Shown here in pieces: positions 10,308 through 25,066 of a DNA stretch of 33,613 nucleotides. Every line of letters begins with the position of its first letter. Position 1 is the first letter of the stretch. The notes under the pieces are model-generated. The model worked only from the letters and a program-made list of their open reading frames with translations, ran no database searches and was not told the DNA's origin. Source of the DNA: an uncultured beta proteobacterium (GTDB taxonomy: Bacteria > Pseudomonadota > Gammaproteobacteria > Burkholderiales > Burkholderiaceae_B); the NCBI GenBank assembly GCA_903929925.1, contig CAIYWO010000081.1, positions 1 to 33,613 of the forward strand. The letters are read 5' to 3'. The position numbers and the translations under genes are program-made.

Positions 10308-11125
10308 CGAGCCCTAAGCTACCTGCATTTGCCCGACCACGTTCGTCGTCGCAATGGAAGAACCCTACTTTCTGGGTACTCATTAGTATCGTCATCGTGA
10401 TTGTCTTAAGTTTCTGGACACTCGACTTACAGTTAGCGCGAATGCTGTCCGTAGATAGCGCTGTCCGGATGGGTAAGTTTTTAGGTGAACTGCTATCGCC
10501 TAATCTTGACCCGAAGTTTTTATCAAAATTAGTCGTAGCGAGCCTTGAGACCCTAGCCATGTCGGCCCTAGGATCTCTGATTGCAGCATTCCTCGGGCTC
10601 TTGCTTGCGTTACCAGCAAGCAAAGCAATTGACGGCACAAAGTCACGTTGGTATTTCATTACCCGCTTGATTTTGAATGCCTTGCGTTCTATCCCTGAGT
10701 TAGTCTGGGCTGCGTTGCTTTTAATCTCCGCCGGCTTAGGACCCTTTGTGGGAACACTTGCTTTAGCTTTTCACACCACAGGCGTCTTGGGACGACTCTT
10801 TGCAGAATCCATAGAAAATGCTCCACAAGGTGCAGCCCAGGCATTACGCATACAAGGTGTGAATGAGGGGCGCATTTTTATCTTTGCCACGCTTCCAACC
10901 GTGCTGCCCCAATTAATTTCCTATTCTCTCTACCGCTGGGAAAACAATATTCGTGCTGCAGCGATACTAGGTGTTGTCGGCGGCGGTGGGCTAGGCCAAA
11001 TGCTGTCGTTCCATATGGGTTTATTTCAGATGCGCGAAACCAGCAGCATCCTGATTGCCATGATCATTTTGGTTGTACTTGTTGACGCCCTATCCTACGT
11101 CGCCCGCCGGCTCATGTCGCGATAG
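10304..11125 (+). CDS. ABC transporter permease (PhnE-like), second copy
   Basis: 'LRSIPELVWAALLLISAGLGPFVGTLALAFHTTGVLGRLFAESIE' and 'YRWENNIRAAAILGVVGGGGLGQML'. ATGA overlap with the upstream permease. Confidence 0.92.
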   Translation: MTSPKLPAFARPRSSSQWKNPTFWVLISIVIVIVLSFWTLDLQLARMLSVDSAVRMGKFLGELLSPNLDPKFLSKLVVASLETLAMSALGSLIAAFLGLLLALPASKAIDGTKSRWYFITRLILNALRSIPELVWAALLLISAGLGPFVGTLALAFHTTGVLGRLFAESIENAPQGAAQALRIQGVNEGRIFIFATLPTVLPQLISYSLYRWENNIRAAAILGVVGGGGLGQMLSFHMGLFQMRETSSILIAMIILVVLVDALSYVARRLMSR

Positions 11126-13103
11126 CACGAATAGCTAAGGCAGCTTCAGTCACTTTTTCTGCGGTAATTCCAAAGTGCTCATACAGTGCATCTACAGGTC
11201 CCGACAAGCCGTAGTCATTCATACCCACAAACCCACCGTTATGACCTAGGTAGCGTTCCCACCCAAGTTTCACTGCAGCTTCGATCGCCACAGTCGTGGT
11301 ACCAGGGCACAAAACCTCTGCGCGATAGGATGCTTGCTGACGATCAAAGAGCTCCCAGCAAGGCATAGAGATCACCGCCGTCGACAGACCTAAAGCTTCA
11401 AGCTGCTCACGTGCCTTTAAGGCAATAGCCACTTCGGAGCCCGTGGCAAGCAAGGTAATTTGACGAGGCATGGTGTTGCCTTCCACTAGTACGTAAGCAC
11501 CTCGCGCGGAGAGGTTATCGTGCCCAGAAGACCTGCGCACGTGTGGAAGCGCTTGCCTGGAAAAAATTAATGAAACTGGACCTTGCTTGTGATTGAGTGC
11601 GGTGTCCCAGCACTCGACGGCTTCTACCGCATCCGCGGGACGCATCACCAACATATGGGGCATCGCACGCAGTGACGCTAAAATTTCAACGGGTTGATGC
11701 GTGGGGCCATTTTTTCCGATACCAATTGAGTCATGGCTAAATACAAATTTAACAGGCAATTTCATCAGGGCGGCATTGCGCAGTGCGGGACGCATGTAGT
11801 CGGAGAAAGCCAAGTACGTGACACTCACAGGTATAGCACCGCCATGCGCTGCAATCCCATTGCACATCGACCCCATCAAGTGCTCTCGTACACCGCAATG
11901 AATATACGCACCACCTTGCTTTGAAACACTGAACGCATCCAAGCGCTTTTTATGATCGGTCGGCGCCTCTAGATCGGCGCACGCCACAATCCGCTCAGGC
12001 AAATGATCGGTCAGACAATCATTAATTGCTGCAGATAAATTGATACCTCCCCGTGGAGGCTCAGAAAGCAGTTTGTCTTTTAAAAGCAGCAGTTCAGCCT
12101 CGAGCGTGTTTGGCAGATCCCCTCGCATGACGCGCTCAAACTCCGCTCTCTTTTCCGCAGAAAGCGCTCCAACACGCGCACGCCATTTTGCGCGACTCGA
12201 CTGACCTGGGATCGGACTCGCCCTCCACGCGTTCAAGGTCGGCGCAGGAATTTCAAATGCCGGATGAGACCAATTCAAATCCTTGCGCATCTGCTCAGAA
12301 TCTGCCTCAAAAAGCTTCGCGCTATGCCCGCCGCGCTGCCCCTGAAGTCTTGCAAGACCCTTTGCGATGGTAGTGCGTGCCAAAATGATGGAAGGACGCG
12401 CATCTTCGCGGGCAGCTGACAGACACGCAGAAATCGCTGCAAAATCATGCCCATCCACTCGTTGAACGTGCCACTGGGCTACTTCAAAACGTTTGGCAAC
12501 ATCCTCGCTGATTGATAACTCCGTGCTTCCGTCATCCGTGATCGCGTTGTCGTCCATCAGCAGAATCAAGCGGCCCAGCCCAAGATGGCCCGCCAGACTG
12601 ATCATTTCCTGACCAACACCCTCTTGTAAGCAGCCGTCACCAACAAAAGCGTAGGTGTAGTGATTCACGAGCTCGCTACCAAAACGTGCGCGTAAAAAGG
12701 CTTCACAGACAGCCATGCCCATCGCATTGGCGATACCTTGACCGAGCTGGCCAGTTGTGACTTCGATTCCGGCATCGGGATCTAATTCAGGGTGCCCTGC
12801 ACAATGGGATCCGAGTTCACGAAACGACTTGATTTGCTCAAGCGTTATTTTCTTGTATCCCGTCAAATAAAGAAGGGAGTACAACAACATCGAGCCATGA
12901 CCATTGGACAGGACTACTCGATCACGATCCCACCAAGTCGGACACTCGGGATCATGCTTGAGATGATTTAGATACAGCGCAGTTGCAATTTCCGCCATCC
13001 CAAGAGGCACACCCTGGTGCCCCTCCCCGGCGCGAACAATCGCATCAACAGACAGAAATCGAATAGCGTTCGCGAGGGTTTGCGGAGAAGACGGAATAGT
13101 CAT
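11112..13103 (-). CDS. Transketolase, full length (divergent acceptor pocket)
   Basis: 'EGHQGVPLGMAEIATALY', 'DRDRVVLSNGHGSMLLYSLLYLTGY', 'AGHPELDPDAGIEVTTGQLGQGIANAMGMA', 'GDGCLQEG', 'GVREHLMGSMCNG', 'HDSIGIGKNGPTHQPVE'. Confidence 0.95.
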   Translation of the reverse strand: MTIPSSPQTLANAIRFLSVDAIVRAGEGHQGVPLGMAEIATALYLNHLKHDPECPTWWDRDRVVLSNGHGSMLLYSLLYLTGYKKITLEQIKSFRELGSHCAGHPELDPDAGIEVTTGQLGQGIANAMGMAVCEAFLRARFGSELVNHYTYAFVGDGCLQEGVGQEMISLAGHLGLGRLILLMDDNAITDDGSTELSISEDVAKRFEVAQWHVQRVDGHDFAAISACLSAAREDARPSIILARTTIAKGLARLQGQRGGHSAKLFEADSEQMRKDLNWSHPAFEIPAPTLNAWRASPIPGQSSRAKWRARVGALSAEKRAEFERVMRGDLPNTLEAELLLLKDKLLSEPPRGGINLSAAINDCLTDHLPERIVACADLEAPTDHKKRLDAFSVSKQGGAYIHCGVREHLMGSMCNGIAAHGGAIPVSVTYLAFSDYMRPALRNAALMKLPVKFVFSHDSIGIGKNGPTHQPVEILASLRAMPHMLVMRPADAVEAVECWDTALNHKQGPVSLIFSRQALPHVRRSSGHDNLSARGAYVLVEGNTMPRQITLLATGSEVAIALKAREQLEALGLSTAVISMPCWELFDRQQASYRAEVLCPGTTTVAIEAAVKLGWERYLGHNGGFVGMNDYGLSGPVDALYEHFGITAEKVTEAALAIRAIAT

Positions 13104-13124: not shown

Positions 13125-13892
13125 TTAATGAATCAACATGCCACCGTTAACATCCAAGGTAATGCCTGTGCAGTATTTTGATAAGTCACTGGCTAGAAAA
13201 ACGACGCAGCCAGCGACATCATTTGGTTCACCGATACGATTCATCGGAATGTTAGACAAAATGTCAGACATGCGATCCGCTGGAATCAGCCCTTTATTGA
13301 TATCAGTCTCGATGAGCCCGGGCGTAATGCAATTCACGCGAATGTTATCAATGCCACACTCACGAGCCATTGCGCGCGCAAGGCCCAACACCCCAGCCTT
13401 CGCTGCAGAGTAATGGGGTCCACCTAGAATCCCACCACCGCGCTGCGCAGAGACCGATGAAGTGCAAATAATTGAACCCTGCTTGCGTGCGCGCATGTGC
13501 GGCAAAACCGCTTGAGACATATAAAGCGCGCCACGCAAGCTCACATCCAAGACAGCCTCATAGTCAGCCGCGCTGATCTCCATCGTCTTGCGAGGTTGGG
13601 TAATGCCAGCGTTATTAAACAAAATATCAATCTGGCCCATTTGCGCCATAACTGCCTTAACAGCCGCTTCGCAAGAAACCTTGTTCGTGACATCGGCGAC
13701 AACGCCCATGTGTTGCTGGCCCAACGTTGCGGCCACAGAGGCTGGCTGCGCTTTTTCAAGGTCAAGAATTACAACTTTTGCGCCCTGTGCGGCCATCATT
13801 CGGGCAGACGCGAAGCCCAGTCCGTTGACCCCTGCACCGCCAGTAATTAGCGCAACTTTATCTTTTAACAACATGTTGAATGTCTCCGTCAA
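13125..13892 (-). CDS. SDR-family oxidoreductase (FabG-like, classical)
   Basis: 'VALITGGAGVNGLGFASARMMAAQGAKVVILD', 'FNNAGITQ', 'CTSSVSAQRGG...HYSAAKAGVLGLARAMA', C-terminal 'GITLDVNGGM'. Confidence 0.92.
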   Translation of the reverse strand: MTETFNMLLKDKVALITGGAGVNGLGFASARMMAAQGAKVVILDLEKAQPASVAATLGQQHMGVVADVTNKVSCEAAVKAVMAQMGQIDILFNNAGITQPRKTMEISAADYEAVLDVSLRGALYMSQAVLPHMRARKQGSIICTSSVSAQRGGGILGGPHYSAAKAGVLGLARAMARECGIDNIRVNCITPGLIETDINKGLIPADRMSDILSNIPMNRIGEPNDVAGCVVFLASDLSKYCTGITLDVNGGMLIH

Positions 13893-13929: not shown

Positions 13930-15189
13930 TCAGTACATCGTTAACGCAGGAAAATATGTCATCAGAGTGAGCACAATGAGCGCCACAAGGTAGAAAGGCC
14001 AAAGCTCTTTTACAATCGCTCCGATCGATTCCCTAGAAATCGCCGCCGCGACAAACAGTGTCGTCCCAACAGGTGGAGTGAACAGGCCGATACTCAGATT
14101 GACCGCCATCATGATCCCGAGCTGAATCAAGTCCAAACCGATGGCGTTACCAATCGCCACGAACGTTGGCCCGAGCAGCAATATCGCTGCCGGCAAGTCC
14201 AGAAACATACCCACTACGAGCATGATGATGTTCAACATCAGCAGGATGACGAGAGGATTCTTAAGGGTTTCCAGAGCCCACTCAGCCACGGCTTTGGGCA
14301 CGGCCTCAACCGTCAGAACATAGCCAACAATATTTGAAGCTGAAATCACCAACATGACAACGCCAGTGGTAACTGCTGTGTGGACTAAGGCATCAAACAA
14401 GCGCTTTAAATTGACGTCACGATAAATCACTAGGCTGACTACTAGCCCGTAAAACACCGCCATCACACTTACCTCGGTCGGCGTCGCGATACCTGCTCTT
14501 AACAAGAAAACGATGAAGAGCGGCATTAATAATGCTGGCAACGCATAAAAAGTAATTTTCAAAAACTCAACAGCTGTAACTTTATTGAGGAGTCTAGGAA
14601 AATTTCTAATCCGGCCAGACAGATAGCACACCAACATAAAACCAAAGCAAAGCATCAGACCAGGAACCACACCCGCTAAAAATAGTGAGGCAATGGACTG
14701 ATCCGATACAGTTGCGTAAATAATTAAAGGGATTGACGGCGGAATCAACCCAGCGATCACTGAAGACGACGCAATAGCTGCTGCCGCAAACGGTCCGGGA
14801 TATCCTTCTTTCTTTTGCCATGGAATCAACATCGAGCCGAGTGCCGACGCTTCTGCGACAGCAGAACCGGACACTCCACCGAAGATCGTTGAGCCCACCA
14901 CGCTGACTTGCGCCAAACCACCATGCATGCGCCCAACCAACGCCGTCGCAAACTCAATCAGTTTTTTCCCTAGGGTACCGCCCATCATCAAATTTCCGGA
15001 CAGTACAAAAAATGGAATTGCTAAAAGAGGAAAACTTTGTGAGGGTTGAAAAATTTTGACCACAATTGTCGCACTGGGCATCGCACCAACAGTGATTGCA
15101 GCGATGCCGGAGCTGACAACTAAAGCATACCCAACCGGAAACGCCAGAACGAGCAGCACTAAAAAAATACCGAGCATTAGGAAAGTCAT
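13930..15189 (-). CDS. TRAP transporter large permease subunit (DctM)
   Basis: 'AIPFFVLSGNLMMGGTLGKKLIEFATALVGRMHGGLAQVSVVGSTIFGGVSGSAVAEASALGSMLIP', 'SSVIAGLIPPSIPLIIYA', 'GLFTPPVGTTLFVAAAIS'. Confidence 0.96.
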   Translation of the reverse strand: MTFLMLGIFLVLLVLAFPVGYALVVSSGIAAITVGAMPSATIVVKIFQPSQSFPLLAIPFFVLSGNLMMGGTLGKKLIEFATALVGRMHGGLAQVSVVGSTIFGGVSGSAVAEASALGSMLIPWQKKEGYPGPFAAAAIASSSVIAGLIPPSIPLIIYATVSDQSIASLFLAGVVPGLMLCFGFMLVCYLSGRIRNFPRLLNKVTAVEFLKITFYALPALLMPLFIVFLLRAGIATPTEVSVMAVFYGLVVSLVIYRDVNLKRLFDALVHTAVTTGVVMLVISASNIVGYVLTVEAVPKAVAEWALETLKNPLVILLMLNIIMLVVGMFLDLPAAILLLGPTFVAIGNAIGLDLIQLGIMMAVNLSIGLFTPPVGTTLFVAAAISRESIGAIVKELWPFYLVALIVLTLMTYFPALTMY

Positions 15190-15728
15190 ACACTATCCTC
15201 CGGAGCGGGCGCACGCACTAACAAGGGATCATCTGCCAAAAGCAGACGGAAGAAAGTAGTAAGCCCCGTGAGGCCCAATGCCACAAAACCAACGATGATT
15301 GACAGGTATGCCCACTTCGCCGAGATCTTTGTGACGGGATACACCTCGGAACCTGTGATTTCGATCACGAATAAGCCGACCTGCGCAAGATAAAAGAAAG
15401 TAAAAATAATGACCAACTGAAGCGCCATCATGACTACTCGATTTACATTTTTGCTAAGAAATGCCCGAATCGTTTCTACGGCGATGTGCTTACCGTATTG
15501 AGCTGCAAGCACGATCCCGCTCATCATTAGCCAAGGAAAAAGAAGGCTTGGAATTTCAGTGGGCCAACCCATTCCTTGGTTAGTGACGTACCTCACAACA
15601 ACTTCCGCCATGAGCGAGACAAACATCACAACTAGCGTGGTCACAGCAATGATCTTGCTGCTTACCTCGATCGTCAGATCGATGATGTTAATTAGCGAAT
15701 TGACTAGATAATTTGCTCGAGCGCTCAT
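15186..15728 (-). CDS. TRAP transporter small permease subunit (DctQ)
   Basis: Four TM segments with 'EVVVRYVTNQGMGWPTEIPSLLFPWLMMSGIVLAAQYGKHIAVE'. ATG at 15728 (MSARANYLV) preferred over the ORF start at 15779. ATGA overlap with dctM. Confidence 0.92.
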   Translation of the reverse strand: MSARANYLVNSLINIIDLTIEVSSKIIAVTTLVVMFVSLMAEVVVRYVTNQGMGWPTEIPSLLFPWLMMSGIVLAAQYGKHIAVETIRAFLSKNVNRVVMMALQLVIIFTFFYLAQVGLFVIEITGSEVYPVTKISAKWAYLSIIVGFVALGLTGLTTFFRLLLADDPLLVRAPAPEDSV

Positions 15729-15747
15729 GGCTACCCCTTCAGGTCGA

Positions 15748-16719
15748 TTATGGCTTAGCGGCTTCTTTGACCATCGCATCCACTAGGTCTGGAAACGTCT
15801 TGCGCCATTTGTCGTACACAGGCTTTGTCGCAGCAATGAACGGAGCTTGATCCACAGTGTTAATTGTGACGCCAGCAGCGGCCAATTTACCTTTCAAGTC
15901 TGCATCGGCCGCAAGAGAAAGATCGCGGTTTAATTTAGCAGCCTCTTTCGCAGCGTCCCTCACTGCTTGCTGATCTTGCTTAGACAATTTCGCCCATTCG
16001 ACTTTACTGGCGAAGAGCGGCGTTGCTTCATACTTATGGCCAGTCAGAGAAATGAACTTCTGCACTTCAAACAGCTTGGACGAATAAATATTCACCAGCG
16101 GATTCTCTTGACCATCGAACACGCCCTGCTGCAACGCAATATAGAGCTCCGAGAATGCTAATGGAGCTGGATTGGCGCCAAGCGCATTAAAGATATCCAA
16201 AGTAATTGGATCAGGTGGGGTGCGGATTTTGATCCCTTTCAAATCTTCTGGCTTGCTAATGGCACGCTTGTTATTGCTTGTGTGACGAATACCGTTATCC
16301 CACATCGCAAGAAGAACCAAGCCCTTTTTATCTGCAGCATCAGCTAATTGTTTGCCGATCGGACCATCGACAACTTTATAAGCGTGTGGTAGATCTCTAA
16401 ACAGGAACGGCAAGCCCAGGACTGCGAATTCAGGTACTGCACCCGATGTTGCACCCTGCGAGTTAGCACTGAACCCCAACGTACCCAAACGGAGGTTCGT
16501 AATGGACTCAGCGTCGTCTCCAAACTGAGCATTACCGCCTACGTTGATCTTGACACGCCCGTTTGTTTTCTGTGCAACTAGCTCCGCAAACTTGTCAGAT
16601 GCAACAGCTTTCGGGTTACCTGGCGCTGCGTTATGAGATAGACGGAATACAGTCTGAGCAGAGACTGCGGATACCGATAGCGCTAAACCTGCAATAGCGG
16701 CGACGAGAAGTTTCTTCAT
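15748..16719 (-). CDS. TRAP transporter solute-binding protein (DctP)
   Basis: Signal peptide; 'FRLSHNAAPGNPKAVASDKFAELVAQKTNGRVKINVGGNAQFGDDAESITNLRLGTLGFSA', 'DLKGIKIRTPPDPITLDIFNALGANPAPLAFSELYIALQQGVFDGQENPL'. Confidence 0.96.
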   Translation of the reverse strand: MKKLLVAAIAGLALSVSAVSAQTVFRLSHNAAPGNPKAVASDKFAELVAQKTNGRVKINVGGNAQFGDDAESITNLRLGTLGFSANSQGATSGAVPEFAVLGLPFLFRDLPHAYKVVDGPIGKQLADAADKKGLVLLAMWDNGIRHTSNNKRAISKPEDLKGIKIRTPPDPITLDIFNALGANPAPLAFSELYIALQQGVFDGQENPLVNIYSSKLFEVQKFISLTGHKYEATPLFASKVEWAKLSKQDQQAVRDAAKEAAKLNRDLSLAADADLKGKLAAAGVTINTVDQAPFIAATKPVYDKWRKTFPDLVDAMVKEAAKP

Positions 16720-16837: not shown

Positions 16838-17830
16838 TTAAAGTTCATTTTTAATACGATGCGACATTACTTCAGTTGAAATTCCATAACGATCATGCAA
16901 GGTCGGTAGAGCACCTGCATCCAAAAAGGCATCTGGCAAAGCAATTGGCAAAAACTTTGGCGCCAAACGCGAACGCAACAACAGACTTGCGATAGATTCC
17001 CCTAAGCCGCCAACCGTCGAATGGTTTTCGGCAACAACCACTAACCGGTCTGCGCGCTTAACTTCTCGCAGAATGGTCTCTTCATCTAACGGCTTGATAG
17101 TTGGCACATGTAAGACACTGACGCCGATACTGTCCTTTTGCAATTGTTCTGCAACCTCAAGGGCTCGCATCGTCATAATCCCAGAGGAAATAATCAGCAC
17201 CTCTCTGCCTTCACGCAAGAGTTTTGCCTTTCCCAATTCGAACTGATAGCCGTACTCATCCAACACCAGCGGTACGTTGCCTCGAAGTAGGCGCATGTAG
17301 ACCGGTCCGTTATACGCAGCTATCGCAGGGACGGCTTGCTCTATGTCTAACGCATCACAAGGATCAATGATGGTCAGGCCTGGAATCGCACGCATCATCG
17401 CCAAATCGTCTGTCGCTTGATGGCTGGGTCCATAGCCCGTCGTCAGGCCTGGTAGCGCACCACAAATCTTAACGTTGAGATTTTCCTCACAAATCACTTG
17501 GTGTATGAAATCGTAAGCCCGTCGCGTCGCGAATACTGCATAGCTTGTGGCAAAAGGAGTGAGCCCCGTTTTTGCCATACCACCTGCGGCAGCCAGCAAC
17601 AACTGTTCAGCCATCCCCATCTGGAAAAACCGCTCTGGATAAGCCTGAGCAAAGATATGCAAGTCTGTGTACTTGCTGAGGTCTGCTGTCATCCCCACAA
17701 TATCTGGGCGACTCTCGCCAAGCGCTGCAAGTGCTTTACCGAAGGGTGCCGCACGCACGCGCTGTCCTTCAGATGCGATAGAGGCAATCATTGCCGAAGT
17801 GGTCAGCCGAGGTTTAGCTGGTGCGTTCAT
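16838..17830 (-). CDS. Transketolase C-terminal subunit (split transketolase)
   Basis: 'FFQMGMAEQLLLAAAGGMAKTGLTPFATSYAVFATRRAYDFI', 'GPSHQATDDLAMMRAIPGLTIIDPCDA', C-terminal 'EVKRADRLVVVAENHSTVGGLGESIASLL'. ATG at 17830 gives an ATGA overlap with the N subunit. Confidence 0.92.
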   Translation of the reverse strand: MNAPAKPRLTTSAMIASIASEGQRVRAAPFGKALAALGESRPDIVGMTADLSKYTDLHIFAQAYPERFFQMGMAEQLLLAAAGGMAKTGLTPFATSYAVFATRRAYDFIHQVICEENLNVKICGALPGLTTGYGPSHQATDDLAMMRAIPGLTIIDPCDALDIEQAVPAIAAYNGPVYMRLLRGNVPLVLDEYGYQFELGKAKLLREGREVLIISSGIMTMRALEVAEQLQKDSIGVSVLHVPTIKPLDEETILREVKRADRLVVVAENHSTVGGLGESIASLLLRSRLAPKFLPIALPDAFLDAGALPTLHDRYGISTEVMSHRIKNEL

Positions 17831-18678
17831 GCGCGCTCTCCACTTCCATAAGTTGAATCCAAAATTTCTAGCGCTTGTTGCCACTCAGGCGGATCAACAC
17901 GGATAAAGTGATTTTTTTCACGCGCCTCTAAAAACGGGACGCCTTTGCCCATCAGCGTGTCACAAATGATGACGCGGGGTTTCTTTTCTGTCACAGAGCG
18001 GGCCACATCAAACGCGTCACGCACGGCATACAGGTCATTACCGTCGACTCGCTGCACATGCCAGCCAAACGACTGCCACTTATCAACTAAGGGCTCAAAT
18101 CCCATCACCTTCGAAGACGCACCATCCGCTTGCTGATTGTTGATATCAACTAAACAGATCAGATTTGAGAGCTGGTGGTGGCTCGCGCCCATCGCCGCTT
18201 CCCAGGTCGCACCCTCGTCTAACTCGCCGTCTGACATCGAGTTGTAGACGAAGGCATCAATTTTTTGATGACGCAACCCAAGGGCCACGCCGACTGCAAT
18301 CGCCAAACCTTGCCCTAGAGAGCCGCCCGACATCTCCATCCCTGGCGTATAGGACGCCATGCCAGACATCGGCAACCGACTATCGTCGCCACCGTAGGTT
18401 TCCATTTCCTCTTTAGGTATGACGCCAGCTTCGAGTAACGCTGCGTAATGCGCAATCGCGTAGTGGCCGTGCGAGAGTAGAAATCGATCGCGCTGCACCC
18501 ACTCAGGATCCTCGGGCTTGAAATTCATGGCATGGCAATAAGCCACAGCCAGTACATCGGCATAGCCTAAGGCCTGGCCAACATACCCTTGGCCTTGAAT
18601 CTCACCCATCTGAACCGAGTAGCGCCGGATACGGTAGGCGCTCTGCGCCAACGCGCGATCGGTTGGTTTTTGTTTCAT
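17827..18678 (-). CDS. Transketolase N-terminal subunit (split transketolase)
   Basis: 'WVQRDRFLLSHGHYAIAHYAALLEAG', 'TPGMEMSGGSLGQGLAIAVGVALG', 'SDGELDEGATWEAAMGASHHQLSNLICLVDINNQQADG'. Confidence 0.93.
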   Translation of the reverse strand: MKQKPTDRALAQSAYRIRRYSVQMGEIQGQGYVGQALGYADVLAVAYCHAMNFKPEDPEWVQRDRFLLSHGHYAIAHYAALLEAGVIPKEEMETYGGDDSRLPMSGMASYTPGMEMSGGSLGQGLAIAVGVALGLRHQKIDAFVYNSMSDGELDEGATWEAAMGASHHQLSNLICLVDINNQQADGASSKVMGFEPLVDKWQSFGWHVQRVDGNDLYAVRDAFDVARSVTEKKPRVIICDTLMGKGVPFLEAREKNHFIRVDPPEWQQALEILDSTYGSGERA

Positions 18679-18811: not shown

Positions 18812-19717
18812 ATGAGAAAGATCCCCCCGCTAAAGTCCGTGCAAGCGTTTGAGGCCGCCTCGCGGTTAGGATCGTTCGTGGCGGCTGCTACTGAACTGCA
18901 CCTAACCCCATCGGCCATCAGTCACCAAGTACGGATGCTTGAGCAGCGCCTGGGAATTGCGCTATTTCACCGAACCCATCGAAGCGTTGAACTTACTGAC
19001 ATTGGACGCCGCTATGCCGAGTCCGTGTCCGAAGCCTTCAGCCTGATCGAAGCCAGTACCCGCAGCATTGAGCGTGCGGGCAAAAGCGATATCTTGACGA
19101 TTCATAGCGTGCCGAGCATCGCTGCTCAATGGCTCATGCCTCGCCTATCCCGGTTTTCTGCGATGCATGCAGACATCGATGTAAGACTCAACGCATCGTC
19201 TGCGCCTGTTGACCTTGCTGCAGGAGAGGCTGATTTTGATATTCGCTACGGAAACTTTTTTCCAGATGCTGGTGTGATGGTCGAACCCTTTCCTGCTGAA
19301 AGAATCGTGGTGAATTGCTCAACCTCGATGCTTCCAGGGCGGCGTTTACCAAAAAAAGGCTTCACCTTAACGGGGAAAACCTTGATCCACACCGAGGTGA
19401 ACAGATATACATGGAGAGACTGGTTCAAGGACCACTCTGAACACAGCATTGATCTTGAAAGAGGGCCCCGCTTCGATCGTTCCTTTATGGCGATCAACTG
19501 CGCAGTGGATGGCCTAGGCATTGCACTAGAAAGCACTTTGCTGATCGAGCGAGAGCTAGAAAGTAAAAAACTAGTTCTGCCTTTGGGCTTAGTTGGACCA
19601 CAAATCGTATGCCATCAACTGACCTACCTCAAATCGAAAGGGCACATCCAAAAAATGAAAGCCTTCCGAAAATGGCTATTTGAAGAGCTAAACCAATCGA
19701 TGACCAAGCTAGGTTAG
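18812..19717 (+). CDS. LysR-family transcriptional regulator (GcvA-like)
   Basis: 'PPLKSVQAFEAASRLGSFVAAATELHLTPSAISHQVRMLEQRLGIALFHRTHRSVELTDIGRRY', followed by a LysR substrate-binding domain. Confidence 0.95.
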   Translation: MRKIPPLKSVQAFEAASRLGSFVAAATELHLTPSAISHQVRMLEQRLGIALFHRTHRSVELTDIGRRYAESVSEAFSLIEASTRSIERAGKSDILTIHSVPSIAAQWLMPRLSRFSAMHADIDVRLNASSAPVDLAAGEADFDIRYGNFFPDAGVMVEPFPAERIVVNCSTSMLPGRRLPKKGFTLTGKTLIHTEVNRYTWRDWFKDHSEHSIDLERGPRFDRSFMAINCAVDGLGIALESTLLIERELESKKLVLPLGLVGPQIVCHQLTYLKSKGHIQKMKAFRKWLFEELNQSMTKLG

Positions 19718-21165: not shown

Positions 21166-21271
21166 TGATCTCAATCCGAGATAAATGCTTGCCATTCAAT
21201 TAATCGTCAGTTAACTTTTGTTCCAGAGACACCGCTCTGATAACAATTGCACGACAAAAATTGAGTTCAAC

Positions 21272-22849
21272 ATGACAAATTCTAGTGGCGCGATACTAGA
21301 CAAGACCTACTCTGGCCCAACGATGGGTGGCATGATTGTTAACTTGCTTAGCCGCTACCCGACGCGCTCAGCATTTATCAATCCTGACGGGGCGCACATC
21401 ACCTACGATACGATCGCGCGGCGAATCGCTTACCTACTAGAAGTCTTTCAAAATTTAGGTTTAAAGCGTGGCGACGCTATCGTGCAGATGTGCGGAAATC
21501 GCGCAGACGTTTTTGCGGTGATGGCGGCATGCTATATCGGCCGCTTTCGATCCGTTGCGCTTCAGCCTCTTGGAGGTATTGATGACCAACTGTACATCTT
21601 GAACAATTGTGAAGCCAAAATACTAATCGTTGATGAAGGCCGACTACAAAGAGCGAATGAACTCAAGCAACGCTCCACACAATCATTCGATATTTTTAGT
21701 CACGACGCCAACGCAAACGCGGCAGGACTGTGGGATAACTTCGATCCAGCTATCAGTCCTATGCTTACGGACCTTAGCGAACCAGACGATATCGTTCGTT
21801 TGATTTATACCGGTGGCACAACAGGAAAATCAAAGGGCGTTATGGGCACGAGCTGCTCGCTTGCCACGAACGCCCTATTTAGAATGGCTGGTCACAATTG
21901 GGTCGATCTACGCTTACTGTGCTCGACGCCATTGTCACATGCAGCCGGTGCAATGATTGTCCCAGTGCTCTGGCACGGGGGTACGATTGTGCTGCACGAC
22001 GGGTTTGACCCAGACAGACTTATTAGCGACATTGAATCAGGAACTGCCAACGCCCTGTACTTGGTTCCAACTATGATTTATCGGCTGCTTGACCATCCGA
22101 AAAGCAGCCAGTTGGCAAAGGCAGGCCTTCGCATGCTGATGTACGGCGCAGCCCCTATTTCACCACCCCGCCTCTTACAAGCGAGGGAGCTGCTTGGCCC
22201 CATCCTGATACAGCACTACGGCCTCACTGAAGCACCAAGCACCGTGCTGAGCTTGTCTGAAGTAGATCATTTAGATGACTCGTTGCTTGCCTCCGCCGGC
22301 AAGCCGTATCCAGGAGCTACGGTAAAGATTCTAGACAATGACGGACAAGAGGTACCGAGAGGTACCGTCGGTGAAATCTGTATTCGCGGTGACCTTGTCA
22401 TGAAAGGCTACTTCAAAGAGCCTGAACTCACAGCGCTCGCACTACGACACGGCTGGCTTTACTCAGGCGATCTGGCCTACCAAAATGAACGCGGCTATTT
22501 TTTCATCGTTGACCGCGCAAAAGATATGATCATTAGCGGGGGCTTTAATGTGTACCCAAAAGAAGTAGAGGATGTCATCGCCACCCATCCCGCTGTCGCA
22601 TCAGTTGCAGTCATTGGCATTCCAGATGCAGACTGGGGTGAAGCAGTTAAAGCAGTCGTCGTACTCAAAGCGGGTTGCGGGGTATCTGCACAGGAACTCA
22701 CGCAGAGAGTGAAGTCTGCAAAAGGTGCGGTTCAAGCACCTAAGACGGTGGACTTCGTCGAGACCTTACCGCTCACCCCACTGGGCAAGTTAGACAAGAA
22801 AGCATTACGCGCTATTTATTGGAATAACAAGGAACGCAGCATCAACTAA
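21272..22849 (+). CDS. Acyl-CoA synthetase / AMP-binding enzyme
   Basis: 'LIYTGGTTGKSKGVMGT', 'IQHYGLTEAPSTV', 'LYSGDLAYQNERGYFFIVDRAKDMIISGGFNVYPKEVEDVI', 'PLTPLGKLDKKALR'. ATG at 21272 (MTNSSG) preferred over the ORF start at 21218. Confidence 0.95.
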   Translation: MTNSSGAILDKTYSGPTMGGMIVNLLSRYPTRSAFINPDGAHITYDTIARRIAYLLEVFQNLGLKRGDAIVQMCGNRADVFAVMAACYIGRFRSVALQPLGGIDDQLYILNNCEAKILIVDEGRLQRANELKQRSTQSFDIFSHDANANAAGLWDNFDPAISPMLTDLSEPDDIVRLIYTGGTTGKSKGVMGTSCSLATNALFRMAGHNWVDLRLLCSTPLSHAAGAMIVPVLWHGGTIVLHDGFDPDRLISDIESGTANALYLVPTMIYRLLDHPKSSQLAKAGLRMLMYGAAPISPPRLLQARELLGPILIQHYGLTEAPSTVLSLSEVDHLDDSLLASAGKPYPGATVKILDNDGQEVPRGTVGEICIRGDLVMKGYFKEPELTALALRHGWLYSGDLAYQNERGYFFIVDRAKDMIISGGFNVYPKEVEDVIATHPAVASVAVIGIPDADWGEAVKAVVVLKAGCGVSAQELTQRVKSAKGAVQAPKTVDFVETLPLTPLGKLDKKALRAIYWNNKERSIN

Positions 22850-22870
22850 TTTAGGCCCCTCGCGGAGAGC

Positions 22871-23866
22871 ATGATGACCAATCGCAATTTCAAGCAGTTT
22901 CTAGCGGCACTATCTCTATGTGTTAGTTCGGCTATCTCTGTGGCGCAAACCTATCCTGATCGTCCCATCAAGATGATCGTTCCTGCACCTGCCGGTTCGT
23001 TCGCTGACATTGTCGGTCGGGAGTTTGGAACACGACTATCAAAGAAGCTTGGGCAGCCAGTCGTGATTGATAACAAAGGTGGGGCAAGTGGCGCAATCGC
23101 CTATTCTGCAGCCGCGAAATCACCCGCTGACGGCTACACCATCTTAGTGACTAACACGGGCCCATCCGCGATCAACCCAGAACTGTTTCGCAGCAAAGGG
23201 CTAAGCTACAACCCAATCGCCGACCTAGATCCAATCGCCCTCATCTGCCTGACTCCAGTCGCTCTGCTTGTCAAAGCGGACTCCCCTTGGAAATCTGTCT
23301 CTGACATCGTCAATTTCGCAGGCAAGAATCCAGACAAACTATCCTTTGGGACAACGGGTAGCGGGCAGTTGAACCACTTGTCAGCGGAGTACCTAAACTC
23401 AGTTGCAAAGATCCGTACGACGCACATACCTTATACGTCTGGTCCTGCAGCGATTACTGACTTGATAGCGGGTCGGATCGACTATCTCTTCTATCCCCCA
23501 GCCAATGGCAAGCCGATGATCGACGACGGCCGCTTACGTGCACTGGCGGTCACGAGTATGAAGAGAACAGTTTCATTACCGAGCGTACCTAGCCTTGCCG
23601 AACTCGGATACAAAGAGTTTGATCTGAGCGCTTGGTTTGGACTTGCCGTTCCTGCGGGAACCCCTAACGATATTGCACAAAAGCTTTGGTCCGTATCAAA
23701 AGAAATCGCCTCTGATCCAGAGTACGTCGAGAGACTGAAGCAATTGGGCATTGATGACGTCTTACATTGGCAAAAAATGACACGCGCAGAGTTGAAAAAG
23801 TTTCATAGTGATGAAGTCGATCGCTGGGGTGCGATTGTCAAACTCGCCGGTGCTAGTGCCAATTAA
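22871..23866 (+). CDS. Bug-family tripartite tricarboxylate transporter (TctC-like) substrate-binding protein
   Basis: Signal peptide; 'YPDRPIKMIVPAPAGSFADIVGREFGTRLSKKLGQPVVIDNKGGASGAIAYSAAAKSPADGYTILV'. Confidence 0.95.
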   Translation: MMTNRNFKQFLAALSLCVSSAISVAQTYPDRPIKMIVPAPAGSFADIVGREFGTRLSKKLGQPVVIDNKGGASGAIAYSAAAKSPADGYTILVTNTGPSAINPELFRSKGLSYNPIADLDPIALICLTPVALLVKADSPWKSVSDIVNFAGKNPDKLSFGTTGSGQLNHLSAEYLNSVAKIRTTHIPYTSGPAAITDLIAGRIDYLFYPPANGKPMIDDGRLRALAVTSMKRTVSLPSVPSLAELGYKEFDLSAWFGLAVPAGTPNDIAQKLWSVSKEIASDPEYVERLKQLGIDDVLHWQKMTRAELKKFHSDEVDRWGAIVKLAGASAN

Positions 23867-23884
23867 TTTCTATTTCTTCAAATA

Positions 23885-25066
23885 ATGGTTGAAAGCGTGA
23901 AGCGAAAAGATAAAGCGTACATCGCAGGGATTTTTGAGCATCCCACAAGGCATGCTCCAGATAAGTCGCTAGTTCAATTACATGCTGAGTGTGCGTTGGG
24001 CGCCCTGAAAGATGCGGGGCTAAGCGCTAAGGATGTAGATGGATTCTTTGGCGGACGGGATATTCCGGGCTCTAATGCGAATTGGTTTATTGATCACATG
24101 AACCTGAAGCTTCGCCACATCGACTCAACCGATGCAGGCGGATGCTCGCCCTTAATTCATGTTTCACATGCAGTGGATGCGATCTCGTCTGGTCGCTGTA
24201 ACGTTGCACTGATCATCCTCGCTGGCAGACCGCGTAGCGAACAAATGAAGACGGGCACCGCACCCCGGCCTTGTGAACCGGATCGTCCAGATGCGCTTTG
24301 GGAGGCGGGTTACCGCCCCACGATATCGACGGCCTACGCCATGATGATGTCTAGGCACATGCATGAATACGGCACTACCTTGGAACAACTGGCATGGGTC
24401 CGTGTCGCAGCCTCCGAGCACGCCAAGCACAACCCTAATGCCATGTTCAACAAGCCTGTAACCGTTGACGATGTGATGCGCTCACCTTTGGTAGCGTCAC
24501 CTCTGCGCAGAATGGACTGCTGTGTCATTAGCGATGGCGGTGGTGCGATCGTATTAGTGAGCCCTGAAATTGCTAAAACACTAAAAAATCCGCTGGTGCG
24601 TGTGATTGGTGCTGGTCATACGGTACACGGACAAAACGGAGGCAACGCCTCCTTAACCACAACCGGTGCATCAATAAGCGGACCGATGGCATTTGCCGAG
24701 GCAGGTGTAACTGCTAAAGATTTTAAATACGCTTCGATCTACGACAACTTTACGATCATGGTCTTGATGCAACTGGAAGACCTGGGCTTTTGTAAAAAAG
24801 GCGAAGGTGGAAAGTTTGTTGCGGATGGCAAACTAATCTCGGGGAACGGCCCGCTTGCCATCAATACAGACGGTGGCGGACTTTGCAACAATCACCCAAG
24901 CAACCGTGGCGGTATCACGAAGCTCATTGAGGCGACACGTCAACTGCGAGGCACTGCCCACCCTGCCGTGCAAGTTAAAAACTGTGATCTTGCATTAGCG
25001 TCCGGCCCTGGCGGTTTTATCGGTACAGGCTATGCCCACGCTACTGTCGTTCTTGAGAGGCTATAG
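23885..25066 (+). CDS. Thiolase-family protein (SCP-x/lipid-transfer-type, DUF35 partner class)
   Basis: 'AYIAGIFEHPTRHAPDKSLVQLHAECALGALKDAGLSAKDVDGFFGG', 'DCCVISDGGGAIVLVS', 'NTDGGGLCNNHPSNRGGITKLIEATRQLRG'. Confidence 0.9.
   Translation: MVESVKRKDKAYIAGIFEHPTRHAPDKSLVQLHAECALGALKDAGLSAKDVDGFFGGRDIPGSNANWFIDHMNLKLRHIDSTDAGGCSPLIHVSHAVDAISSGRCNVALIILAGRPRSEQMKTGTAPRPCEPDRPDALWEAGYRPTISTAYAMMMSRHMHEYGTTLEQLAWVRVAASEHAKHNPNAMFNKPVTVDDVMRSPLVASPLRRMDCCVISDGGGAIVLVSPEIAKTLKNPLVRVIGAGHTVHGQNGGNASLTTTGASISGPMAFAEAGVTAKDFKYASIYDNFTIMVLMQLEDLGFCKKGEGGKFVADGKLISGNGPLAINTDGGGLCNNHPSNRGGITKLIEATRQLRGTAHPAVQVKNCDLALASGPGGFIGTGYAHATVVLERL

What the first reader, a model, noticed from the sequence alone, without database searches (positions are those of the whole stretch)
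17827..18678. Split transketolase N-subunit lacks two of the conserved active-site histidines
Compared by eye with E. coli TktA: the SGHPGAPMG region (His26) reads 'QGYVGQALG', so His becomes Tyr. The TPGHPE region (His100) reads 'LPMSGMASYTPGMEMSGG', with no His. The His66 region ('LSHGHYAIAHY') and a His near the His261 region ('EAREKNHFIRV') remain, as does the ThDP/Mg region ('SDGELDEG...NNQQADG'). This suggests altered donor handling or chemistry while ThDP binding is retained. I recall related 'GYVGQ.LG ... RLPMSGMA.YTPGMEMSGGSLG' proteins in other proteobacteria, so this is probably a known but functionally unassigned subfamily.
Basis: partly seen in the sequence, partly recalled or inferred. 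Interest (0 to 1): 0.6.

Follow-up and report, generated by a model that had tools for sequence, protein, structure and literature searches.

The report
Split transketolase for unphosphorylated sugar acids
A two-gene enzyme related to transketolase, found in many soil and plant-associated bacteria, has lost two catalytic histidines and most of the pocket that grips sugar phosphates, which suggests it cuts unphosphorylated sugar acids in a breakdown pathway that nobody has yet assigned.

Summary
The ORF at 17827-18678 (-) is the N (ThDP) subunit of a split transketolase. The C subunit follows at 16838-17830 (-) with a 4-nt overlap. E. coli TktA His26 is Tyr32, and there is no His in the His100 segment; a gapless alignment puts Ser105 there. 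His66, His261 and the ThDP/Mg residues remain. These states are invariant in 89 of 89 relatives. N subunits with the Tyr form one clade with full support.

TktA R358 is replaced and S385 is Tyr. H461 is lost, D469 is deleted and F434 is Tyr; E411, H473 and R520 remain. Several of these changes match engineered E. coli transketolases that accept unphosphorylated substrates, including one with raised activity on 5-keto-gluconate. The operon's full-length transketolase carries R358I, S385P and D469N.

Neighbours are a LysR regulator, an acid-type transporter, an SDR and often an L-threonate-dehydrogenase-like enzyme. In two lineages a complete D-erythronate/3-oxo-tetronate gene set lies alongside.

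Best reading: a transketolase-type enzyme that cleaves an unphosphorylated keto sugar acid (C4-C5 class) made by the linked dehydrogenase. The exact donor is not settled; a DXS-like methyl-ketone donor is a live rival. No characterised member was found.

The parts
17827..18678 (-). Split transketolase N (ThDP-binding) subunit, 283 aa; Y32 (TktA H26), H72 (H66), S105 (H100, gapless alignment), D150/N180 (ThDP-Mg), H257 (H261)
   Evidence: AF2 pLDDT 82.8, best fold match 6yak chain AAA, TM 0.84
16838..17830 (-). Split transketolase C subunit, 330 aa from the ATG at 17830; overlaps the N gene stop by 4 nt. E75 (TktA E411), Y54 (S385), Y97 (F434), H137 (H473), R183 (R520) present; R358, H461 and D469 equivalents lost
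   Evidence: AF2 pLDDT 81.6, best fold match 6yaj
15748..16719 (-). TRAP transporter solute-binding protein DctP
   Evidence: TIGR00787 above cut-off; nearest solved relatives 4p9k/4pak, 4pdh
15186..15779 (-). TRAP small permease DctQ
   Evidence: position between dctP and dctM; recurrent cluster
13930..15189 (-). TRAP large permease DctM
   Evidence: TIGR00786 above cut-off
13125..13892 (-). SDR dehydrogenase, proposed to oxidise the imported acid to the keto donor
   Evidence: Pfam adh_short_C2; recurs next to the TK pair
11112..13103 (-). Full-length transketolase; keeps all catalytic His but has TktA R358 as I, S385 as P, F434 as Y, D469 as N (20/20 operon copies)
18812..19717 (+). Divergent LysR (GcvA-like) regulator
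   Evidence: GcvA model, below cut-off; recurs in the family's loci

Best explanation
This is a ThDP-dependent split transketolase (N + C subunits, expected alpha2beta2) whose substrate pocket has been rebuilt for an unphosphorylated, acidic substrate. Proposed route: the TRAP transporter imports a short sugar acid (C4-C5 aldonate class, tetronate-like). The SDR, or in other genomes a threonate-dehydrogenase-like enzyme, oxidises it to a hydroxy-keto acid. The split transketolase attacks the ketone with ThDP, breaks the bond to the neighbouring carbinol, releases a small oxo-acid and passes the two-carbon unit to an aldehyde. A likely example is 3-oxo-tetronate giving glyoxylate plus a C2 unit. 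Shown: the sequence, the residue changes and their invariance, the single clade, the fold, the operon and its recurrence. Inferred: unphosphorylated acid substrate, the reaction and the direction. Least certain: the identity of donor and acceptor.
For: (1) Active-site chemistry kept: E411, H473, H66, H261, D155 and N185 equivalents in 89/89. (2) Phosphate site dismantled: R358 replaced (A/S/P/N/T/V), S385 to Tyr 89/89, H461 to Leu 89/89, D469 deleted 89/89. Its salt-bridge partner R91 (PMC5073344) is Gly in 89/89. [quoted passage not shown] PMC12016104 reports that TktA R358I/H461S/R520Q has raised activity on 5-keto-D-gluconate, a keto sugar acid. (4) The operon's own full-length TK carries R358I, S385P, D469N in 20/20. 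(5) Operon: TRAP or acid-type MFS (shikimate-like, galactonate-like), SDR, LysR, no sugar kinase in the core. (6) Links to short sugar acids: an L-threonate-DH-like enzyme in 28 loci; a complete denD-otnK-otnC-otnI set, all above NCBIfam cut-offs, directly before TKN-TKC in L115; the same set annotated near the pair in Pararhizobium; lactonase-family genes in pNGR234a and pAA03. (7) D-2-hydroxyacid dehydrogenase in 14 loci and MOFRL glycerate 2-kinase in 7 (partial copies included), which suit a released glyoxylate or hydroxypyruvate.
Against: R520 is kept, so one phosphate ligand remains and a phosphorylated acceptor is not excluded. The otn gene set is adjacent in only two lineages. Genome-level co-occurrence with OtnK is uninformative, because OtnK is near-universal in the same genera with or without the TK. 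The closest solved DctP relatives are distant, and PMC11668362 warns that such ligands are often co-purified. Loss of H100, Tyr at 434 and the one-residue deletion at 469 are also DXS-like, which points to a donor without a C1 hydroxyl. No enzyme assay exists.
Confidence: 0.5

Rival explanations
1. A DXS-like acyl-transferring enzyme: the donor lacks the C1 hydroxyl (pyruvate, or a methyl-ketone acid made from a deoxy sugar acid such as 2,3-dihydroxybutanoate) and an acetyl rather than glycolyl unit is transferred.
For: H100 is lost. PMC7661550 states His100 is consistently Phe in DXPS and that H100F/H100L in G. stearothermophilus TK raise activity on pyruvate. F434 is Tyr and the D469 position is deleted, as in E. 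coli DXS. DXS structures rank next after split TK for the C subunit by fold. Lactonase-family neighbours fall in the fucono-lactonase family, far below its cut-off.
Against: The H100 column is Ser, not Leu/Phe. The N subunit is clearly TK-like by sequence and fold. The DXS arginine at the H461 column is absent.
Confidence: 0.22
2. The donor or product is an unphosphorylated ketose such as erythrulose; the pair works beside a tetrulose kinase and isomerases.
For: L073, L091 and L080 carry a DhaK-type kinase, a xylose-isomerase-like TIM barrel and an RpiB whose second-best model is D-erythrulose-4-phosphate isomerase (183.9 of 240 bits, below cut-off) with the TK pair; DhaKL-type kinase and TIM barrel also in Pararhizobium and Paracoccus.
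Against: The great majority of loci have no kinase in the operon, and the transporters are of acid type.
Confidence: 0.13
3. A specialised but phosphate-using split TK like apulose-4-phosphate TK or SqwGH.
For: Split architecture in a catabolic operon.
Against: Most phosphate ligands are lost and Tyr sits at S385. No apulose or sulfo-sugar kinase or isomerase set recurs in the operon. Sequences of AptAB and SqwGH were not available to compare.
Confidence: 0.07
4. An ordinary pentose-phosphate transketolase with neutral drift.
For: Transketolase fold and ThDP site.
Against: Drift would not give the same changes in 89/89 members across classes and a single fully supported clade.
Confidence: 0.04

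Closest known systems
Carboxydothermus hydrogenoformans split transketolase (PDB 6yak/6yaj; PMC7661550)
   Same: Two-gene architecture, closest solved relative of both chains by sequence and fold, ThDP/Mg residues, H66, H261, E411, H473, R520
   Different: 6yak has H26 and H100 and 6yaj has S385, H461 and D469; the window pair lacks all of these
E. coli TktA
   Same: Fold, ThDP motif, E411, H66, H261, H473, R520
   Different: H26, H100, R91, R358, S385, H461, D469 all changed
Engineered TktA S385Y/D469T/R520Q (PDB 5hht) and R358I/H461S/R520Q
   Same: S385 to Tyr is identical to the natural split family; R358I is identical to the natural operon full-length TK; R358, H461 and D469 lost in the split family too
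   Different: Natural family keeps R520 and loses H26 and H100
[quoted passage not shown]
   Same: Tyr at TktA F434, deletion at D469, no His100 equivalent
   Different: Separate N and C chains, TK-like N subunit, no Arg at the H461 column
D-erythronate / L-threonate pathway (DenD, LtnD, OtnI, OtnK, OtnC)
   Same: Physically adjacent in two lineages; the linked bHAD enzyme is L-threonate-dehydrogenase-like
   Different: That known pathway phosphorylates 3-oxo-tetronate (own knowledge); no transketolase is part of it
pNGR234a LysR-SDR-transketolase-TRAP operon (annotated only as transketolase)
   Same: Same operon layout, member of the family
   Different: No function assigned in the record

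Membership tests
Transketolase superfamily (ThDP, TK-type fold) | Transketolase_N / Transket_pyr / Transketolase_C domains | tested here: met
Transketolase superfamily (ThDP, TK-type fold) | ThDP/Mg Asp and Asn and catalytic Glu411 | tested here: met
   89/89
Canonical transketolase (EC 2.2.1.1) | Active-site His26, 66, 100, 261, 473 | tested here: not met
   H26 and H100 absent in 89/89; H66, H261, H473 present
Canonical transketolase (EC 2.2.1.1) | Sugar-phosphate ligands R358, S385, H461, R520 and D469 | tested here: not met
   Only R520 kept
Canonical transketolase (EC 2.2.1.1) | Xylulose 5-phosphate transketolase activity | not testable with these tools
   needs assay
Split-gene transketolase | PP domain and Pyr+C domains on two adjacent genes | tested here: met
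   both subunits found in 89/89 loci
Split-gene transketolase | alpha2beta2 assembly | not testable with these tools
   single-chain models only
DXS | DXP_synthase_N domain / NCBIfam dxs above cut-off | tested here: not met
   C subunit 190 of 465.95 bits; no DXS hit for N
DXS | Arg at the TktA H461 column | tested here: not met
   Leu in 89/89
Apulose-4-phosphate TK / SqwGH | Activity on apulose 4-phosphate or sulfofructose, with matching pathway genes | tested here: inconclusive
   No such pathway genes recur; reference sequences not available
Known 3-oxo-tetronate (otn) pathway | otn genes in the same operon | tested here: inconclusive
   adjacent in two lineages only; genus effect in co-occurrence

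The most novel reading that the evidence does not exclude
A natural transketolase family dedicated to unphosphorylated keto sugar acids: it cleaves a 3-oxo (or other keto) C4-C5 aldonate directly, releasing glyoxylate or hydroxypyruvate and a C2 unit. This would be a previously undescribed, kinase-free route for sugar-acid catabolism, run together with a second, full-length transketolase that lost the same phosphate ligands independently.
Probability: 0.35. Interest if true: 0.78.

Novelty: new variant of a known kind. Interest (0 to 1): 0.6.

Why it matters
Proteins annotated simply as transketolase in hundreds of genomes and plasmids, including a rhizobial symbiosis plasmid, probably do something else. 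Nature seems to have reached the same pocket changes that engineers made to turn transketolase to unphosphorylated and keto-acid substrates. That makes the family a direct test of transketolase specificity rules, a possible biocatalyst, and a handle on a missing step in sugar-acid breakdown in soil and plant-associated bacteria.

Tried and rejected
(a) Genome-level co-occurrence with OtnK: 36 of 43 TK-positive genomes carry OtnK over the cut-off, but within the window's genus most TK-negative genomes carry it too (12 of 14), so this says nothing. Only physical adjacency was used. (b) Apparent second otn-linked locus: L115 and L016 (genome G211) proved to be identical DNA, so they count once; the independent second case is Pararhizobium. 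(c) DctP ligand inference: the closest liganded structures are pantoate/erythronate-type, but the match is distant and ligands may be co-purified; kept as weak support only. (d) DRL-domain oxidoreductase c16 near five loci (one a fragment) might be an apionate oxidoisomerase, which would make 3-oxo-isoapionate the donor and hydroxypyruvate the product; no NCBIfam model recognised it, so it was not relied on. (e) Literature searches for this split TK, for y4mN/y4mO (names recalled from memory) and for a transketolase-tetronate link found no functional study; only open-licence papers are held. (g) One PDB search was wasted on wrong coordinates.

Full report
Check of the observation. The ORF at 17827-18678 (-) encodes 283 aa with the quoted motifs. 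It is a Transketolase_N protein. The gene that follows, 16838-17830 (-), is the matching Transket_pyr + Transketolase_C subunit, and by coordinates its ATG overlaps the N gene's stop by four bases. Against E. coli TktA read from MG1655, H26 is Tyr32, H66 is His72, H261 is His257, and the ThDP/Mg Asp155 and Asn185 are kept, each in 89 of 89 family members. The His100 segment aligns without gaps and places Ser105 at His100, flanked by Met104 and Met107, in 89 of 89.

Family and clade. Close relatives occur in 30 of 269 genomes of the window's family at 66% identity or more, including the window's own, in 12 other genomes of a spread sample of 299 from the phylum at 63% or more, in 402 plasmid records at a looser cut-off, and in 80 genome loci with up to 10 kb of flank. 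N and C subunits were both found in all 89 loci examined. In a maximum-likelihood tree of 53 N subunits, all those with Tyr at the H26 column fall on one side of a single branch (100/99 support; every bootstrap tree), including more distant sister groups at 41-51% identity; split transketolases with His lie outside.

Measured on the same 89 loci, the TktA phosphate ligands change as follows: R358 to A/S/P/N/T/V, S385 to Tyr (89/89), H461 to Leu (89/89), while R520 stays Arg. D469, which PMC5073344 shows salt-bridged to R91, is deleted in 89/89, and R91 is Gly in 89/89. F434 is Tyr in 89/89. E411 and H473 stay. Predicted folds are sound (mean pLDDT 82.8 and 81.6) and match split transketolase best.

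Meaning of these changes, from papers. PMC5073344 describes TktA S385Y/D469T/R520Q (PDB 5hht): Tyr385 would clash with the phosphate of natural substrates, and the variant takes unphosphorylated aromatic aldehydes. PMC12016104 cites TktA R358I/H461S/R520Q with raised activity on 5-keto-D-gluconate, a keto sugar acid cleaved to tartaric semialdehyde. PMC7661550 notes that His100 is Phe in DXS and that H100F or H100L in a bacterial TK raises pyruvate use. The split family therefore resembles both laboratory enzymes turned to unphosphorylated or keto-acid substrates and, in part, DXS.

A second, independent hint. The operon's full-length transketolase (11112-13103) keeps H26, H66, H100, H261, H461 and H473 but has R358 as Ile, S385 as Pro, F434 as Tyr and D469 as Asn in 20 of 20 operon-linked copies. 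The R358I change is the one used in the 5-keto-gluconate variant. The two enzymes share losses at the same pocket positions, although they are only about a third identical in their N parts.

Operon. In the window the order is LysR (divergent), TKN, TKC, dctP, dctQ, dctM, SDR, full-length TK. Across loci the recurrent neighbours are LysR (68 loci), SDR (67), dctM (47), dctP (45), a beta-hydroxyacid dehydrogenase closest to L-threonate dehydrogenase (28), full-length TK (20) and two MFS types (9 and 4), one of them related to the shikimate transporter. The K. pneumoniae locus uses a galactonate-like MFS. A separate sample shows an SDR next to the pair in 12 of 13 family loci. No sugar kinase is part of the core. 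A D-2-hydroxyacid dehydrogenase occurs in 14 loci, mostly beside the full-length TK, and a MOFRL glycerate 2-kinase in 7, partial copies included.

Clues to the substrate. In L115 a denD-otnK-otnC-otnI operon, all four above their NCBIfam cut-offs, runs straight into TKN-TKC and a threonate-dehydrogenase-like gene. In Pararhizobium qamdonense the annotated denD, otnK, aldolase and TIM-barrel set, a threonate-dehydrogenase-like gene, TRAP, TKN, TKC, SDR and a DhaKL kinase lie together. L073, L091 and L080 carry a DhaK-type kinase, a TIM barrel and an RpiB close to D-erythrulose-4-phosphate isomerase. pNGR234a and Aminobacter pAA03 add a sugar ABC transporter and lactonase-family genes. The closest solved DctP proteins include erythronate/pantoate binders (literature; the assignment of these ligands to the individual PDB entries is from memory), which is weak support. 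Genome-level co-occurrence with OtnK is confounded by genus and was discarded.

Mechanism proposed. Shown: sequence, residue states, clade, fold, operon. Inferred: the SDR or the threonate-DH-like enzyme makes a hydroxy-keto acid; ThDP adds to its ketone; cleavage, helped by the retained H66, H261, H473 and E411, releases an oxo-acid; the two-carbon carbanion is passed to an aldehyde. A C4 acid oxidised at C3 would give glyoxylate; a branched C5 acid would give hydroxypyruvate. Either fits the hydroxyacid dehydrogenase and glycerate kinase seen in some loci. The main rival is a DXS-like transfer of a methyl-bearing unit, because H100, F434 and D469 are altered in the DXS direction.

Known or new. 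The proteins are in the databases as transketolase and no functional study was found among the papers held. It is filed as a member of the transketolase superfamily and of the split-gene type. It is not filed as a canonical transketolase (defining residues not met) nor as DXS (models and the arginine not met). It is a new variant of a known kind with an unassigned reaction.

Noticed in passing
window 11112-13103 (-): Full-length transketolase in the same operon with R358I, S385P, F434Y, D469N relative to TktA, invariant in 20 of 20 operon-linked copies, while all catalytic His are kept.
   Followed up: yes
L139-L141 (same bacterial family as the window): Sister-clade split TKs (42-44% identical) lie in a different operon: branched-chain-type ABC transporter, an alcohol-dehydrogenase-like gene, SDR and acyl-CoA-type genes (by eye from translations), so the wider clade probably serves other substrates.
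   Followed up: partly
L135 (genome G542): Intermediate relative (51%) beside two enolase-superfamily (MR_MLE-like by sequence start) genes and a sugar-type ABC transporter.
   Followed up: no
L146, pNGR234a 320292-331350: The family sits on the symbiotic plasmid of Sinorhizobium fredii NGR234 a few kb from nodS/nodU, and on many other Rhizobium plasmids from legume nodules.
   Followed up: no
L047, L055, L074, L080, L094 (fragment): A DRL-domain (DXR-like) oxidoreductase near the split TK; it could be an oxidoisomerase of branched sugar acids.
   Followed up: partly
L147, Sulfitobacter plasmid: The TK-SDR-TRAP operon lies directly next to Tn7/Mu-type transposition genes and an integrase on an 83-kb mobilizable plasmid.
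   Followed up: no
window 21218-25066 (+): An acyl-CoA-synthetase-like gene, a Bug-type binding protein and a thiolase-like gene form a neighbouring + strand cluster (by eye from translations), apparently unrelated.
   Followed up: no
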